Positions 10,747-31,882 of a stretch of DNA of 64,000 nucleotides are shown here, piece by piece. The stretch's first letter is position 1; each line of letters opens with the position of its first letter. The stretch spans positions 186,001-250,000 of the forward strand of contig NZ_PXZT01000002.1 of the NCBI RefSeq assembly GCF_003008695.1, in the 5' to 3' direction. This DNA is from Trichococcus alkaliphilus (lineage in GTDB: Bacteria; Bacillota; Bacilli; Lactobacillales; Aerococcaceae). A model generated the notes under the pieces. It had not been told where the DNA came from. It ran no database searches and was given only the letters and a program-made list of their open reading frames with translations. The translations under genes were made by a program, and so were the position numbers.

Positions 10747-11014
10747 AATTAACCAATACAATATAAAGCGATGAAAAAGACAGTAGAATCGGGATTTTGT
10801 CCTATAGAGAGTCAGCGGTTGGTGGAAGCTGATGCAAGCCTGGATTCGAATTACACTTTGGAGCTTTCTTATGCGCATAAGCGGTCGGCATACGATACAT
10901 GTCAGAGTGGCAAAGTCTTTCCGATTTCGGGATGATTCTGCAAGCTGGGTGGTAACACGGTAACTATCGTCCCTGTTCAAACAAGTATTTTCTTGTCTGG
11001 ACAGGGATTTTTTT
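10747..11014 (+). promoter_or_regulatory. Tyrosine T-box riboswitch of tyrS
   Basis: Leader RNA that reads uncharged tRNA-Tyr. Stem I carries the AGAGAG and GGTGGAAGCTGA elements (10806-10832). The probable specifier is TAC (Tyr) at 10852-10854 followed by a purine. The T-box core GGGTGGTAACACGG is at 10947-10960, with the UGGU bulge that pairs with an ACCA tRNA end. The terminator (TCCCTGTTCA with TGGACAGGGA, inner ACAAG/CTTGT, seven T) spans 10970-11014. Low tyrosine would stabilise the antiterminator and raise tyrS expression. Confidence 0.95.
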
Positions 11015-11047
11015 GCATATAAATTTATGAGAAAAGGAATGAAGCAC

Positions 11048-12310
11048 ATGAATATCATCGACGAATTAGAATGGCGCGGCGCCATCAACCAACAAACGGA
11101 TGCAGAAGGTTTACGCAAATTAACAGAGGATGAGCAGATCGGCCTTTATTGCGGCGTCGACCCTACCGGTGACAGCCTGCATATCGGTCATCTGATTCCC
11201 TTCATTGTATTGAAGAGATTCCAACTGGCCGGGCACAGACCCGTAATCCTGATAGGCGGCGCAACCGGCTCGATCGGCGACCCAAGCGGAAAGAGCGAGG
11301 AACGGGTTCTGCAATCGATGGATCAAGTCGTCGAGAATGCGAATGCTTTGACCTCTCAAATGAAGAAACTGTTCCTTTCCGACAGTTCAGCTGACATCCG
11401 GCTCGTCAACAACTATGACTGGACCAAAGATTTGACGCTGTTGGATTTCCTGCGCGACTTCGGCAAGAATTTCAACATCAATACGATGCTGGCCAAAGAT
11501 ATCGTAGCCAGCCGTCTGGATACCGGCATTTCCTTCACGGAATTCACTTACCAAATTTTGCAGTCCATGGACTTCCTGCACCTTTTCCAGAATGAAGGCG
11601 TCAACCTTCAGATCGGCGGCCAGGATCAATGGGGCAACATCACTGCCGGTTTGGACCTGATCCGCAAAAAAGAAGGCGCGGAAGCAAAAGCTTTTGGTTT
11701 GACGATTCCTTTGATGCTGAAGGCGGACGGCACAAAATTCGGCAAGACTGCCGGTGGGGCCGTCTGGTTGGACCCGAAGAAAACAACCCCTTACGAGTTC
11801 TACCAATTCTGGGTGAACCAGGACGACCGCGATGTCATCAAATACTTGAAATACTTCACTTTCCTTTCGAAGGCAGAGATCGATGCGCTGACTGAAAAAG
11901 TGGAAACAGAGCCGCACAAACGCGAAGCCCAAAAAGTTTTGGCATCCGAAATGACGCGCTTCGTCCACAGCGAACAAGCCCTTCAGGACGCTCTAAAGAT
12001 CACCGAAGCCTTGTTCACCGGCGAAGTGAAGGAATTGACTGCCGACGAAATCGCGGAAGGCTTCAAAAATATGCCGACATTCGAAGCCGACCTGAAGGAA
12101 CAGGATTTGGTCACTTGGCTGGTCGATCTCGGCATCGAACCGTCACGCCGTCAATCACGCGAAGACATCCAAAACGGCGCCATCTCCATCAACGGCGACA
12201 AAGTTACGGATCTGGAATTTGTCATCACTGCCGAAAATTCTTTCGAAGGCCGCTTCATCTTAGTACGCCGCGGCAAAAAGAAATATTTCCTGGTTAAATT
12301 GGTGGCTTGA
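11048..12310 (+). CDS. tyrS: Tyrosyl-tRNA synthetase
   Basis: Class I synthetase that charges tRNA-Tyr. The HIGH-like motif is in CGVDPTGDSLHIGHLIPF near residue 40; the KMSKS-equivalent is TKFGKTAGGAVWL near residue 230. The C-terminal S4-like RNA-binding domain includes PSRRQSREDIQNGAISING. The ATG at 11048 is chosen because AAAGGA precedes it by about 9 bases; in-frame ATGs at 11027 and 11039 lack a properly spaced RBS. That gives 420 residues, normal for the bacterial TyrS family. Controlled by the T-box leader. A GNAT gene follows after one base. Confidence 0.98.
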   Translation: MNIIDELEWRGAINQQTDAEGLRKLTEDEQIGLYCGVDPTGDSLHIGHLIPFIVLKRFQLAGHRPVILIGGATGSIGDPSGKSEERVLQSMDQVVENANALTSQMKKLFLSDSSADIRLVNNYDWTKDLTLLDFLRDFGKNFNINTMLAKDIVASRLDTGISFTEFTYQILQSMDFLHLFQNEGVNLQIGGQDQWGNITAGLDLIRKKEGAEAKAFGLTIPLMLKADGTKFGKTAGGAVWLDPKKTTPYEFYQFWVNQDDRDVIKYLKYFTFLSKAEIDALTEKVETEPHKREAQKVLASEMTRFVHSEQALQDALKITEALFTGEVKELTADEIAEGFKNMPTFEADLKEQDLVTWLVDLGIEPSRRQSREDIQNGAISINGDKVTDLEFVITAENSFEGRFILVRRGKKKYFLVKLVA

Positions 12311-27720: not shown

Positions 27721-29142
27721 ATGGCTCAAAATCAGGTAAGAGGCGCTGTAAAGCGTCCGTTCGGATTCCGTGACCTACTCGGATACTTCATGGGCGACTT
27801 CGGCTGCAACATGAGTTTCACGTTAATTTCCAGCTACATGTTCATTTTCTATACACAGTACATCGGGATTTCATTGGCTCACTATTCCATAATCATTCTG
27901 ATCACAAAGATCTTTGACGGCATCAACGATCCCATCATCGGCGCGTTCGTCGACCGCATGGGCGCAAACAAAAAAGGCGAAAAATTCAAGCAATGGATTC
28001 TCCGCGGCGCACCTTTCTTGGCATTGGCAGCGACTATCATGTTCATCGATGCAGCTGACTGGTCCTATCCTGCTAAGCTGGCCTTGTGTATCGGTGGCTA
28101 TATCTTATGGGATATCACTTATACGGTCGTTAATGTTCCTTACGGCGCCCTGAGCTCTGTTATGAGTTCCAAACCTTCACAACGCGCGGCTTTATCCAAT
28201 GCTCGTTCTTGGGGATACATCATCGCCGGTGTTCCTCTAGGCATCCTGATTCCGTTGTTCGCTTATGAACAAGTCACAAAAAATGGCCAGACAGCAAGTA
28301 TTTTCCGCGGCGAAAGAATGTTCCCGATTGCAATCATTTTGGGTGTTGTTTCCATCGTTGCTTTCGCGCTTCTCTATCTGAATACAGAAGAGCGCATCCA
28401 GCACGTGGAGGTTACAGGCGAAGAAGTGAAATTCAACTATTTTAAGACGTTGCGCGATTTTTTCCGCAACCGCGCTATTCTGGGTATCGCTCTTGCCTCC
28501 ATCGCACAAATCCTGTTCATCATGGGCGGAACCCAATTGCATCAATTGACTTACCAGATGTACTTCGGAGACGGAACCTTGAGTTCTTACTCCATCCTGA
28601 CGCAAGTTATCCCATTATTCGTAGGTACTGCTATCGGTGGTGCATTGGTCGGAAAACTTGGTAAAAAAGAATTGTCGACTTGGCCGTTAGTTGGTTCCAT
28701 CGCTGTATACGCTTTTGTTTACTTTACCGAAATCACAAATCCGATTCTTTGGATCACGTTGCAGATCCTCGCGAACAGCTTCGCCTTCGGTTTGACGATC
28801 TACACTTGGGGTATGGTTGCTGATGCGATCGATTATCAAGAGTGGAAGACCGGCACCCGCAATGAAGGTTCCGTTTACGCTACTTACTCTATGTTGCGTA
28901 AAGTCGCACAAGGTTTCGGCCAATCCTTCATACCTGCAGCCATCGCTATCTTGATACCAACACTGGATGTTAAGGATGCTGTGACTTGGACCGCTGAAAA
29001 TTCATTGGCTATCCGGGATATGGCTGCCCTGTTCCCGTTGATCGGCTACATCCTCATCTTCATCTGCTTCAAGTTCATCTTCAACCTGGACAGAAAAACA
29101 GTTGCTGAGATGCAAGTCGCTCTAGGCCGCGACGAAGAATAA
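27721..29142 (+). CDS. GPH family sugar-cation symporter (hexuronide type)
   Basis: Twelve-helix membrane transporter of the glycoside-pentoside-hexuronide family, 473 residues. Diagnostic stretches are FGFRDLLGYFMGDFGCNM, ITKIFDGINDPIIGAFVDR, and AYGALSS-like VPYGALSSVMSSKPSQRA. It should import glucuronate or a glucuronide with Na+ or H+. Unlike MelB/LacS it lacks a C-terminal EIIA-like domain. Strong RBS AGGGAGG lies before the ATG. Transcribed away from the IclR gene, with its own promoter, a cre-like site and an operator shared with the catabolic genes. The exact sugar is inferred from the neighbours. Confidence 0.9.
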   Translation: MAQNQVRGAVKRPFGFRDLLGYFMGDFGCNMSFTLISSYMFIFYTQYIGISLAHYSIIILITKIFDGINDPIIGAFVDRMGANKKGEKFKQWILRGAPFLALAATIMFIDAADWSYPAKLALCIGGYILWDITYTVVNVPYGALSSVMSSKPSQRAALSNARSWGYIIAGVPLGILIPLFAYEQVTKNGQTASIFRGERMFPIAIILGVVSIVAFALLYLNTEERIQHVEVTGEEVKFNYFKTLRDFFRNRAILGIALASIAQILFIMGGTQLHQLTYQMYFGDGTLSSYSILTQVIPLFVGTAIGGALVGKLGKKELSTWPLVGSIAVYAFVYFTEITNPILWITLQILANSFAFGLTIYTWGMVADAIDYQEWKTGTRNEGSVYATYSMLRKVAQGFGQSFIPAAIAILIPTLDVKDAVTWTAENSLAIRDMAALFPLIGYILIFICFKFIFNLDRKTVAEMQVALGRDEE

Positions 29143-29226: not shown

Positions 29227-30924
29227 TTATTCGAATTCTGCAAAAAGTTCTTCCGGTGTCTTCAGAACGCCACCGGTATTGGCTGACGTAACCAAAGCCG
29301 CGTAACGTGCCAACCAGCCTGTCTTCACTTTCGGCATGAAGCGTGTCTGTTTTTTCTTTCTTTCTTCCAGCACTTCATCAGCAACGCTTACGTTGATCGT
29401 ACGGTGCTCCAGATCGATGACGATTTCATCGCCATCTTCAATCAAGCCGATTGGGCCGCCTGAAGCTGCTTCAGGCGAGATGTGTCCGATCGCGATACCG
29501 CGAGTGGCACCGGAGAAACGGCCATCCGTGATCAGGGCAACATCGCGGCCTAAGCCGCGTCCCACGATGGAAGAAGTTGGAGCCAGCATTTCCGGCATTC
29601 CAGGTCCGCCTTTAGGGCCTTCATAGCGGATGACGACAACATGACCTTTTTTGACTGTGCGGTTATCGATTGCTTCCACTGCCTCATCATGGCTGCTGAA
29701 GCAGATCGCTTTTCCGACGAATTTTTTGATGTCGGCATCCACGCCGCCTACTTTGATGACGCCGCCGAAAGGAGCGATATTCCCGTTCAGGATGGACAAG
29801 CCACCGACTGGGGAATAGGCATTCTCGTATTTATGGATGACTTCTTCGTTCTTGATTTCATGGCCCGCGACATTTTCACGGATTGTTTTGCTGGTGACAG
29901 TGATACGGTCCGGATGCAGGTTGCCGTGTTTGATCAATTCATTCATGATCGCCGGCACACCTCCCGCCTCATGCACATCATGCATGGAGTAAACAGATGA
30001 TGGTGCTATTTTTGATAGATACGGAGTTGTTTCCGCAATCTCGTTGATACGGTTCATGTCATAGTCGATTCCGGCTTCTTTCGCCAAAGCCAATGTATGC
30101 AGCACCGTATTCGTCGAGCCGCCCATCGCCATATCCAAAGCGAAAGCATCATCGATCGCATCAGCAGTGATGATGTCAAGCGGTTTGATGTCTTTTTTGA
30201 CCAAGTCCATCAATTTGAAAGCCGCTTCGCGAATCAGTTCTCTTCTCTCGTCGCTGACTGCCAAAGCAGTACCGTTGTACGGCAATGCCAATCCCAATAC
30301 TTCCATCAAACAGTTCATCGAGTTGGCGGTGAACATCCCCGCACAAGAACCGCATGTTGGACAAGCGTTGGCTTCCATATCGAAGAATTCTTCCTCGGTC
30401 ATGTTACCTTCTTTGAAAGTTCCCACCGCTTCAAACATGGATGACAATGTCAGAGCCTGTCCAGTAGCGGAAAGTCCAGCCTTCATCGGGCCGCCCGAGC
30501 AGAAAATCGCCGGAACGTTGGTGCGGACAGCAGCCAACAGCATACCCGGTGTAATTTTATCGCAGTTCGGGATGTAGAAAACACCGTCGAACCAGTGTGC
30601 GTTGATGACCGTTTCAGCGGCATCGGCAATGATTTCGCGTGATGGCAATGAGTAACGCATCCCGATGTGTCCCATCGCGATCCCGTCATCGACACCGATA
30701 GTGTTGAACTCAAAAGGAATCCCGCCGGCTTCACGGATCGCTTCTTTGGCGATATCACCCAATTCTCTCAAATGCACGTGACCAGGCACGATATCTGTAT
30801 AGGAATTGCAGACAGCTATGAACGGTTTGTCCATGTCCCCTTCTTCCCTGATTTGTCCGGTCGCTCGCAACAAGGAACGATGTGGCGCTTTATCTATTCC
30901 TTTTTTGATTATATCACTACGCAT
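29227..30924 (-). CDS. ilvD: Dihydroxy-acid dehydratase
   Basis: Fe-S dehydratase of valine/isoleucine synthesis, making 2-ketoisovalerate and 2-keto-3-methylvalerate. The cluster cysteines are in [12 protein letters not shown] and [14 protein letters not shown]. Other family blocks are [13 protein letters not shown], and [20 protein letters not shown] near the C-terminus. ATG at 30924 (GGGGAGACAGCA upstream) gives 565 residues, the normal length; the frame stays open to 31026 but runs through the attenuator. It stands alone here, without ilvBN, ilvC or leuABCD. Expression is controlled by the attenuator and leader peptide upstream. Confidence 0.97.
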
Positions 30925-30954: not shown

Positions 30955-31052
30955 AAAAAAGAAGCCCTCATGTAATATAGGGCTCCAGCTTACGTCGAGC
31001 CCTGATTCACAAAGAATAGGACTCAACTAATTGAATAGTTTGAATCCTAGGG
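30955..31052 (-). promoter_or_regulatory. Transcription attenuator of ilvD
   Basis: Three competing pairings are visible. (1) The leader-peptide end CCCTAGGATTCA (31041-31052) can pair with TGAATCAGGG (31000-31009). (2) AGGGCTC/GAGCCCT (30979-31003) is an antiterminator. (3) GGAGCCCT with AGGGCTTC plus six T (30955-30986) is the terminator. Pairings 2 and 3 share GAGCCCT. Ribosome stalling at the Leu/Val/Ile codons would mask 1 and allow 2; release at the stop codon would allow 1 and hence 3. Confidence 0.85.
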
Positions 31053-31124
31053 CATAATAATGACTAATAAAGTGTTTACAGCATGGTAAGCTGTCGTGTT
31101 AAGTGCGTTCATTCTTCTCATCAT
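31047..31124 (-). CDS. ilvD leader peptide (25 aa)
   Basis: A 25-codon reading frame with a strong RBS (AAAGGAG, 7 bases before the ATG) directly after a consensus promoter. Residues 19-23 are Leu-Leu-Val-Ile-Ile, the three branched-chain amino acids whose shortage should induce ilvD. The stop codon lies inside the first pairing segment of the attenuator. This is the classic design of an ilv/leu leader peptide; the peptide itself probably has no other function. Confidence 0.85.
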   Translation of the reverse strand: MMRRMNALNTTAYHAVNTLLVIIMP

Positions 31125-31154
31125 ACTGCAACTCCTTTCATTATCTTTCTTTAA

Positions 31155-31183
31155 ATATTAAATCTAAATTAGAAAAAAGTCAA
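31155..31183 (-). promoter_or_regulatory. ilvD leader promoter
   Basis: TTGACT (31178-31183), 17-base spacer, TAATAT (31155-31160). Transcription would begin about 20-25 bases before the leader-peptide ATG. Confidence 0.82.
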
Positions 31184-31237: not shown

Positions 31238-31882
31238 CTAAAGGACAGGGACAGGCGAGAAGTTTTCCGGAAAGCAGAGGTCAGCACTGTCCGGATCGAT
31301 TGAATCGATGATCAGCTCATTTTCATATGCCAAGCTTTGCTCGCCCTCACCCATGGACATATCATTGAAATGACAAAGAATCCCTTCATACAAAGGCACA
31401 AACGGCAATGCTTCCAAAACATCTGTCGGTCTCATCAGTGCCACGGGCTTGTTGGCTTGCAGCACGTCCCCCTCCACTAATACAGTCGAAATAAAATGGG
31501 AACAAAAATAATAATTTTCCCTGTCCCATACCTTATTGAATAGAGCCGGCAATAGCCCCAGCAGATTATAATGGTATTTTTCTTTGTCCTTCTCGAATGA
31601 AGAGACATAGCCTCTCATCACAGCCGCCTGTTCCTCTGACACGGTCAACTCATAAACCGCGCATTTTGCCCGGCTGTAGAAATCGGATGTCACATCTTCT
31701 TGTATAAACCCACCGATAAAAGGGTTATTGGCTTTTTTGCGGCCGAAACTGAAGGTATCCGCCAGTTCTGCATCAAACGCCAAGGATACGTGGTTATATT
31801 TTTTTCTCGTGAACAGTTTGATGATCCGAGTCAACATCGATCCTGTATCCGTCAATAATAAATAAATCTTCTGATCTGACAT
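31238..31882 (-). CDS. Permuted papain-like (NlpC/P60 superfamily) hypothetical protein
   Basis: 214 residues, cytoplasmic by appearance (no signal peptide). The N-terminal block KYNHVSLAFDAELADTFSFG holds a histidine and the central ENYYFCSHFISTVL a cysteine. This His-before-Cys order is that of circularly permuted papain-fold amidases of the YiiX/YebB kind. Family members are thought to cleave amide or ester bonds, but the substrate is unknown. The last 45 residues are acidic and probably extended. It stands alone between ilvD and the aminotransferase gene. Fold assignment is by motif pattern only. Confidence 0.65.
   Translation of the reverse strand: MSDQKIYLLLTDTGSMLTRIIKLFTRKKYNHVSLAFDAELADTFSFGRKKANNPFIGGFIQEDVTSDFYSRAKCAVYELTVSEEQAAVMRGYVSSFEKDKEKYHYNLLGLLPALFNKVWDRENYYFCSHFISTVLVEGDVLQANKPVALMRPTDVLEALPFVPLYEGILCHFNDMSMGEGEQSLAYENELIIDSIDPDSADLCFPENFSPVPVL

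What the first reader, a model, noticed from the sequence alone, without database searches (positions are those of the whole stretch)
30955..31183. ilvD is controlled by a ribosome-mediated attenuator with an Leu-Leu-Val-Ile-Ile leader peptide
A consensus promoter, a strong RBS, a 25-codon leader frame with LLVII near its end, and three mutually exclusive pairings ending in a terminator with six T sit in order before ilvD. The logic closes: stalling at the control codons hides CCCTAGGATTCA, freeing the antiterminator. Firmicutes usually control ilv/leu genes by T-boxes and CodY, so a classical three-amino-acid attenuator on a stand-alone ilvD is notable. Lactococcus has a comparable leu-ilv leader by memory.
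Basis: partly seen in the sequence, partly recalled or inferred. Interest (0 to 1): 0.75.

Follow-up and report, generated by a model that had tools for sequence, protein, structure and literature searches.

The report
Leader-peptide switches for branched-chain genes
The stretch before this gene for making branched-chain amino acids looks like an RNA on/off switch read by a stalling ribosome, and the same five-part switch, with its codons matched to the gene it guards, sits before other branched-chain amino-acid genes in this bacterium and many relatives.

Summary
In detail: promoter-like site, SD, 25-codon leader ending TLLVIIMP, competing helices and terminator precede ilvD in a Trichococcus genome. 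As a kind it is known: ilvD leader-peptide attenuators are published for Staphylococcus aureus and Listeria. Comparison shows five RNA segments A-E forming four mutually exclusive helices: A:B, B:C, C:D (antiterminator), D:E (terminator). A lies just after the control codons: a ribosome stalled on early control codons leaves A free (A:B, C:D, readthrough); a ribosome at the stop codon covers A (B:C, D:E, termination). Masking A, not the A-B loop, lowers predicted antitermination.

The larger result: a covariance model finds four such leaders in this genome, before ilvD, ilvB-ilvH-ilvC-ilvA, ilvE and leuA (control run Leu-only). 153 of 395 sampled genomes of the order have a model match; fetched ones precede ilv/leu genes, binding proteins, BASS transporters and RidA. 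Control codons fit the gene: Leu at leuA, mostly Ile at BASS, Ile-, Leu- or Val-only at binding proteins, one His case. New variant of a known kind. Against: Listeria start/RBS mutants lowered ilvD, which this switch does not predict.

The parts
31155..31183 (-). promoter-like site, TTGACT - 17 nt - TAATAT
   Evidence: 9 of 12; both hexamers kept in 8 of 8 closest loci
31132..31138 (-). Shine-Dalgarno AAAGGAG of the leader peptide
31047..31124 (-). leader ORF MMRRMNALNTTAYHAVNTLLVIIMP + TAG
   Evidence: homologues
31056..31070 (-). control codons TTA TTA GTC ATT ATT (Leu Leu Val Ile Ile)
   Evidence: same bases in 8 of 8 closest loci
31037..31048 (-). segment A (AGGATTCAAACT), overlaps the stop codon; pairs with B
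31014..31027 (-). segment B (GTTGAGTCCTATTC); pairs with A or with C
30994..31008 (-). segment C (GAATCAGGGCTCGAC); pairs with B or, by AGGGCTC, with D
30977..30986 (-). segment D (GGAGCCCTAT); antiterminator with C, terminator with E
30961..30971 (-). segment E (ATGAGGGCTTC), 3' arm of the terminator
30955..30960 (-). six T of the terminator
29227..30924 (-). ilvD, dihydroxy-acid dehydratase; the next long ORF downstream is convergent (27721-29142 +), so it looks monocistronic

Best explanation
It is a member of a class of ribosome-mediated transcription attenuators with a shared five-segment RNA (A-E). Shown by sequence comparison: leader ORF, control codons, four mutually exclusive helices and terminator. 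Inferred: the dynamics. When Leu, Val or Ile runs short the ribosome stalls on the control codons, 22 to 10 nt before A, leaving A free (only in part at the last Ile codon); A pairs with B, which frees C; C pairs with D (antiterminator) and RNA polymerase reads into ilvD. When all are plentiful the ribosome reaches the stop codon and covers A; B then pairs with C, D pairs with E, and transcription stops at the six T. In this genome the same switch stands before ilvD, ilvB-ilvH-ilvC-ilvA, ilvE and leuA, so it forms a regulon whose amino-acid specificity is set by the control codons.
For: Folding of the window: the full untranslated leader has A:B (10 pairs) and C:D (7 pairs) in its lowest-energy fold and no D:E; without A it folds as B:C + D:E. 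Covariation in 74 diverse leaders: 97.0, 90.5, 89.3 and 86.5% of cells paired for A:B, B:C, D:E, C:D; best slid control 66.6, 57.2, 59.4, 53.9%; covariation score reached by 0 of 500 shuffles in each. A:B and C:D were not in model R1 that found most of these, and hold in the 52 non-ilvD rows (97.4 and 87.1%). RNAalifold picked B:C + D:E by itself on the ilvD set. Geometry: last control codon begins 13 to 4 nt before A, stop codon begins -7 to +20 from A, stop-codon ribosome reaches the end of A's core in 165 of 165. Partition function on RNA to the end of D: D paired upstream 0.581 with A free, 0.339 with A masked, 0.552 with a 6-nt A-B loop mask, 0.582 with B masked; A-mask below loop-mask in 139 of 160; window 0.85, 0.36, 0.85, 0.85. 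Four leaders in the own genome by R1, which held only ilvD leaders; genes named. Specificity: Leu share at leuA 0.907 vs 0.385 overall, Ile share at BASS 0.819 vs 0.442, 0 of 20000 permutations each. Published S. aureus mutants selected to grow without valine (PMC5794164) map at one offset only on S. schweitzeri: a Leu-to-stop change in the control run and two point changes in B's AGUCCU; the paper reads them as relieving repression, as this switch predicts.
Against: No experiment in Trichococcus. In Listeria, start-codon and RBS mutants of Rli60 lowered ilvD transcription (PMC5864092, section 8), whereas this switch predicts readthrough without a ribosome (L. cossartiae L030, no ribosome 0.69, stalled 0.70, at stop 0.10). 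In the 66 ilvD leaders alone the A:B count of doubly changed cells (11) was reached by 122 of 300 shuffles. The folding test does not discriminate for leuA leaders (stall above stop in 9 of 15), the own ilvE leader (0.45 vs 0.51) or the His leader L219 (0.56 vs 0.54), and goes the other way by more than 0.1 in 12 of 155; L033 (Enterococcus) is opposite too. The own ilvB leader has no clear SD. Equilibrium folding ignores kinetics and pausing; the +12 ribosome edge is assumed. Many of the 165 leaders are close relatives, so counts are not independent events.
Confidence: 0.75

Rival explanations
1. Classical four-segment attenuator: segment 1 (CCCTAGGATTCA) pairs with TGAATCAGGG, a stalled ribosome hides segment 1, freeing AGGGCTC for the antiterminator.
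For: The pairing is present in the window and its 8 closest loci, weaker in L016; fits the Listeria start/RBS mutants, where no translation means less ilvD (PMC5864092).
Against: No equivalent seen in the other genera's segments; weaker than B:C (-9.7 vs -16.6 kcal/mol); stalls on Leu/Leu/Val do not reach it (coordinates); RNAalifold does not return it; a premature stop in the S. aureus leader was selected as a suppressor (PMC5794164).
Confidence: 0.12
2. Leader-peptide attenuation is real, but polymerase pausing and coupling set the folding order, so that the untranslated leader terminates (superattenuation) despite A:B and C:D.
For: Listeria Rli60 start and RBS mutants (PMC5864092); A:B is a hairpin that could act as a pause site (fold; pausing is inference).
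Against: A:B is compatible only with the antiterminator side of the conserved chain; the S. aureus premature-stop suppressor.
Confidence: 0.25
3. A tRNA-sensing T-box or a metabolite riboswitch rather than a translated leader.
For: T-boxes are common in this genome (26 matches at E <= 0.001, 14 over the cut-off).
Against: No Rfam match over the gathering score at the leader; best sub-threshold match is rli60 (20.7 bits); none in 9 sister regions; SD, ORF and codon match to gene.
Confidence: 0.02

Closest known systems
S. aureus ilvD leucine-rich attenuator (Kaiser et al. 2018, PMC5794164; section 9 and passages read)
   Same: Same gene, SD-ORF with an Ile/Leu run, terminator; the Staphylococcus loci align with the window.
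   Different: The paper's antiterminator pairs GAAUGG with the terminator's U tail and leaves the terminator stem intact; the conserved helices here give C:D instead. One operon only.
Listeria Rli60 (Brenner et al. 2018, PMC5864092, section 8 and passages read; Rfam RF02414)
   Same: Leader peptide before ilvD with terminator and antiterminator; Listeria loci align here.
   Different: Four segments drawn by PASIFIC; the window scores 20.7 bits against a cut-off of 60.
His-leader attenuators of Firmicutes (PMC2965389 section 10 and passages; PMC9413887 passages)
   Same: His-codon leader before hisZ; L219 has HHH before a hisZ-like gene and hisG and matches the A-E model.
   Different: One His case only was found here; whether the published ones share A-E was not tested.
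E. coli/Salmonella his, ilv and leu attenuators (recalled)
   Same: Chain of alternative helices read by a ribosome at control or stop codons.
   Different: No Rfam leader of Proteobacteria matched the window.

Membership tests
Ribosome-mediated (leader-peptide) transcription attenuator | short ORF with SD and a run of codons for the pathway's product | tested here: met
   (155 of 165 vs 1.8 in shuffles)
Ribosome-mediated (leader-peptide) transcription attenuator | intrinsic terminator and a mutually exclusive antiterminator | tested here: met
Ribosome-mediated (leader-peptide) transcription attenuator | leader is translated and expression responds to starvation for the coded amino acid | not testable with these tools
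   needs reporter or RNA-seq
Five-segment (A-E) class described here | four mutually exclusive helices A:B, B:C, C:D, D:E with covariation | tested here: met
   A:B is the weakest on doubly changed cells within ilvD leaders
Five-segment (A-E) class described here | last control codon begins 4-13 nt before A and the stop codon lets the ribosome cover A | tested here: met
Rfam RF02414 rli60 | score over the gathering cut-off | tested here: not met
   20.7 bits vs 60
T-box (RF00230) | match of the T-box model over its cut-off at the leader | tested here: not met
   the one T-box in the window is at 10762-10977; none of 26 matches at the four leaders

The most novel reading that the evidence does not exclude
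A modular riboregulator class of Bacilli: one fixed five-segment RNA chassis into which Ile-only, Leu-only, Val-only, mixed or even His codons are slotted, giving Lactobacillales a T-box-like, gene-by-gene amino-acid regulon (biosynthesis, binding proteins and other transporters, RidA), with inverted parity so that a ribosome at the stop codon is the OFF signal. The codons would also predict the substrate of unassigned transporters.
Probability: 0.45. Interest if true: 0.8.

Novelty: new variant of a known kind. Interest (0 to 1): 0.62.

Why it matters
Leader-peptide attenuators of Firmicutes appear in the papers I saw as separate cases. Here one RNA architecture recurs before many genes of a pathway, up to six leaders in one genome (G004), with the sensed amino acid readable from the leader. 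That gives a testable alternative model for the S. aureus and Listeria ilvD leaders, a covariance model with which to annotate the class, and substrate predictions for paralogous transporters (in genome G244 three binding-protein paralogues carry Ile-, Leu- and Val-coded leaders).

Tried and rejected
A segment upstream of A that would restore superattenuation was looked for by eye only; nothing convincing. T-box and Rfam leaders rejected. More His members: family and order of G301 hold 2 genomes and gave the one known hit over E 0.01; a His-leader pattern over 368 genomes matched G301 and G349; the G349 string reads on as an open frame and was not looked at further. Phylum sample: 3 of 398 genomes, two of them known Lactobacillales and one (G818, L272) judged not a leader.

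The 165 leaders are: 66 ilvD (window + 65 of the 80 loci), 3 own sister leaders, 59 of 60 R1 hits fetched, 27 of 36 R2 hits fetched, and 10 of the loci. Dropped: judged false by eye L221, L223-L228, L234, L268, L272, L276 (E 3e-5 to 4e-3, so an E-value near 1e-4 is not safe alone); L170 and L233 (no A:B by my rule); L264, L266, L267 (not resolved). Not analysed: model-found loci L096-L125, L186-L215, L253-L260, L273. The 15 ilvD loci left out are Streptococcus (7), Loigolactobacillus (3), Bacillaceae-type (4) and Floricoccus (1). A regular expression first missed nine Staphylococcus loci in alignment A1; they were added back. In one search ten of 165 leaders, the window among them, were skipped by the terminator finder; for D was set by pattern in the nine Trichococcus-type ilvD leaders.

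CodY is present; CodY boxes were not tested. R2 was built with the four own leaders in it, so its scores for them are by construction; R1 was not.

Full report
Observation. The organism is a Trichococcus: the eight closest ilvD loci have 93-99% protein identity and seven are titled Trichococcus, one Sedimentibacter sp.. ilvD is certain (TIGR00110); the next long ORF downstream is convergent.

Conservation around ilvD. In the 600 nt before ilvD, an SD-preceded short ORF with a run of four I/L/V codons was listed for most Trichococcus, Staphylococcus, Mammaliicoccus, Listeria, Enterococcus, Vagococcus and Sporolactobacillus loci (L018, L019, L059 and L063 fail that rule but align), and nothing like it for the Streptococcus (7), Loigolactobacillus (3), Floricoccus (1) and Bacillaceae-type (4) loci. 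In 66 sequences (window + 65 of 80 loci) five blocks could be anchored: A (AGGACU), B (AAGUCCUAUU), C (AAUGGGACUU), D (GUCCCAAU), E (AUUGGGAC + U run). In Trichococcus C, D and E shift together (AGGGC/GCCCU/AGGGC where Staphylococcus has GGGAC/GUCCC/GGGAC), a three-way change that keeps C:D and D:E. In one search A:B keeps 64-66 of 66 in its six core pairs and C:D 61-66 of 66 in its five; doubly changed cells are 11 for A:B (shuffle mean 7.8, reached by 122 of 300), 39 for B:C (18.0, 0 of 300), 42 for C:D (15.1, 0 of 300) and 144 for D:E (39.7, 0 of 300). RNAalifold on the 57-row alignment A1 returned B:C and D:E without being told.

A class, not a case. A covariance model from A1 (R1; pairs B:C and D:E only, ilvD leaders only) found four leaders in the window's own genome: ilvD (62.5 bits); C11:3987-4104 before ilvB-ilvH-ilvC-ilvA (58.5 bits, E 9.5e-9; leader MKTMNPLNIIIVLMI, no clear SD); C21:157223-157328 before ilvE (36.7 bits, E 5.7e-4...DALVILKVI); C13:7496-7629 before leuA (36.0 bits, E 7.7e-4...SYNGLLL, a Leu-only run) (genes named by NCBIfam). 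None of the 26 T-box matches lies at these four places. With R2 (A:B + D:E, most control codons left out) 41 of 76 genomes of the family have a match at E <= 0.005, and all 13 genomes of this genus have three or four (the own leaders are in R2). In the order 123 of 295 sampled genomes match R1 at E <= 0.01 and 153 of 395 match R2 at E <= 5e-4; in the class 45 of 398 at E <= 0.01; in the phylum sample 3 of 398 at E <= 0.002, one of them not convincing. Most matches were not looked at one by one; of 60 R1 hits fetched 59 and of 36 R2 hits fetched 27 passed my A:B rule and eye. Genome G004 has six leaders (L126-L129, L222, L232).

Covariation on a broad set. On 74 diverse leaders (A2) A:B has 97.0% of cells paired with 13 cells changed on both sides, B:C 90.5% and 53, C:D 86.5% and 32, D:E 89.3% and 181. 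In each, 0 of 500 shuffles reached the covariation score or the doubly-changed cells, and sliding the partner lowered pairing to 67% or less. For the number of pairs with a change on both sides the shuffles did as well in 186 (A:B), 51 (B:C), 7 (C:D) and 29 (D:E) of 500, because the GG:CC core hardly varies. B:C and D:E were in R1, so their counts among R1 hits lean that way; A:B and C:D were not.

Specificity. Genes after the leaders were named by BLAST to this genome's proteins and by Pfam/NCBIfam. Codons in A-31..A-4: 15 leuA leaders Leu 57, Ile 4, Val 2; 12 BASS-type (SBF) transporters Ile 49, Leu 7, Val 5; 11 ilvB Ile 31, Val 21, Leu 17; 7 ilvE Ile 21, Val 11, Leu 5; 2 RidA-type Ile 7 only. 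Of 19 Peripla_BP_6 binding proteins (BCAA type by best NCBIfam model for the three searched, below its cut-off) 8 have Ile-only runs (L129, L133, L135, L165, L167, L185, L245, L247), 3 Leu-only (L136, L222, L275), 2 Val-only (L137, L249; L246, another such protein, is Val-only too), the rest mixed. Genome G244 has Ile- (L135), Leu- (L136) and Val-coded (L137) leaders before three such paralogues. Other targets: BrnQ (L169), oligopeptide transport (L143, L144, L237, L269), M20 peptidases (L168, L263), CstA (L184), PTS_EIIC_2 proteins (L147, L148, L262, L274), thiolase (L232). Permutation over loci: Leu share at leuA 0.907 vs 0.385, Ile share at BASS 0.819 vs 0.442 (0 of 20000 each), Val share at ilvB 0.311 vs 0.173 (p 0.006). 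One leader outside the order (L219, E 2.8e-5) encodes ...FYIHHHMTRV before a hisZ-like gene (TIGR00443, 151.8 bits, below its cut-off) and hisG (TIGR00070, over it); by eye on the letters it has AGGGUUUG/CAAGCCCU (A:B), CAAGCCCU/AGGGCUUG (B:C) and UUGUGUAG/CUGUACAG (C:D). It is a single case.

Mechanism. In the window the control codons begin 22 to 10 nt before A; over 165 leaders the last one begins 13 to 4 nt before A (most often 9), and the stop codon begins -7 to +20 from A. With a ribosome edge at A-site base 1 + 12 (recalled) a stall on the early control codons leaves A free, and a ribosome at the stop reaches the end of A's core in 165 of 165. Because A:B is compatible with C:D and B:C with D:E, this gives readthrough on starvation and termination in plenty. 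The window's own folds show both states: the whole leader folds with A:B and C:D and without D:E, the part without A folds as B:C + D:E. In partition-function folding of RNA up to the end of D, masking A's six bases lowered upstream pairing of D from 0.581 to 0.339, loop masks of equal size to 0.552, and masking B left it at 0.582 (160 leaders; A-mask below loop-mask in 139 of 160, above it by more than 0.1 in 9). With prefixes removed instead, stall exceeds stop in 136 of 155. The test is weak or contrary for leuA leaders (9 of 15), the own ilvE leader, L219 and L033.

Published data. Kaiser et al. (PMC5794164; section 9 whole, other passages) selected S. aureus mutants that grow without valine; on S. 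schweitzeri L025 only one offset fits the reported letters, placing the stop change in the second Leu codon of the control run (codon 19), the two point changes in B's AGUCCU, and the 27-bp deletion over 21 of 23 terminator-hairpin bases. The paper reads them as relieving repression, as the A-E switch predicts; its own antiterminator drawing is different. Brenner et al. (PMC5864092; section 8 whole, other passages) showed that Listeria Rli60 start and RBS mutants lower ilvD in one medium, which this switch does not predict; I count it as the main evidence against the no-ribosome state. PMC2965389 (section 10 whole, other passages) and PMC9413887 (passages) report His leaders in Firmicutes; PMC6123439 (passages) names S. 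aureus and L. monocytogenes as tested and L. lactis, C. glutamicum and Streptococcus as predicted. The listings of searches (capped at 15-20 rows; open-licence papers only) showed no paper on a multi-locus class of this kind; the rest of the literature was not searched.

Verdict. Real, well supported as an attenuator, not new as a kind at ilvD; new, as far as these searches go, in the shared five-segment architecture, the set of four in Trichococcus, and the codon-matched spread over BCAA genes and transporters in Lactobacillales.

Noticed in passing
window 10762-10977 +: T-box leader (107 bits) upstream of an ORF at 11027-12310 that reads like tyrosyl-tRNA synthetase (name by eye, not searched).
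   Followed up: no
window 31238-31882 -: 214-aa ORF just upstream of the ilvD promoter; by eye its last codons stay beside the leader in several of the closest loci but not in L014 (T. ilyis) and L016 (T. palustris).
   Followed up: no
L135, L136, L137 (genome G244): Three Peripla_BP_6 binding-protein paralogues preceded by Ile-, Leu- and Val-coded leaders, a direct substrate prediction.
   Followed up: partly
L142, L158, L145, L146, L244: Ile-coded leaders before a BASS/PanS-like transporter and/or a glycerol-dehydrogenase-like Fe-ADH; suggests an unassigned isoleucine-linked (perhaps keto-acid) pathway.
   Followed up: partly
L161, L162: Ile-only leaders before RidA-type Rid-family hydrolases.
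   Followed up: partly
L219:301-428: His-coded leader with the same A-E segments before a hisZ-like gene and hisG in a genome outside Lactobacillales.
   Followed up: partly
L247, L248 (genome G664, 1.5 kb apart): Two neighbouring binding-protein paralogues each with its own leader, one IIIII and one VVVIVI.
   Followed up: partly
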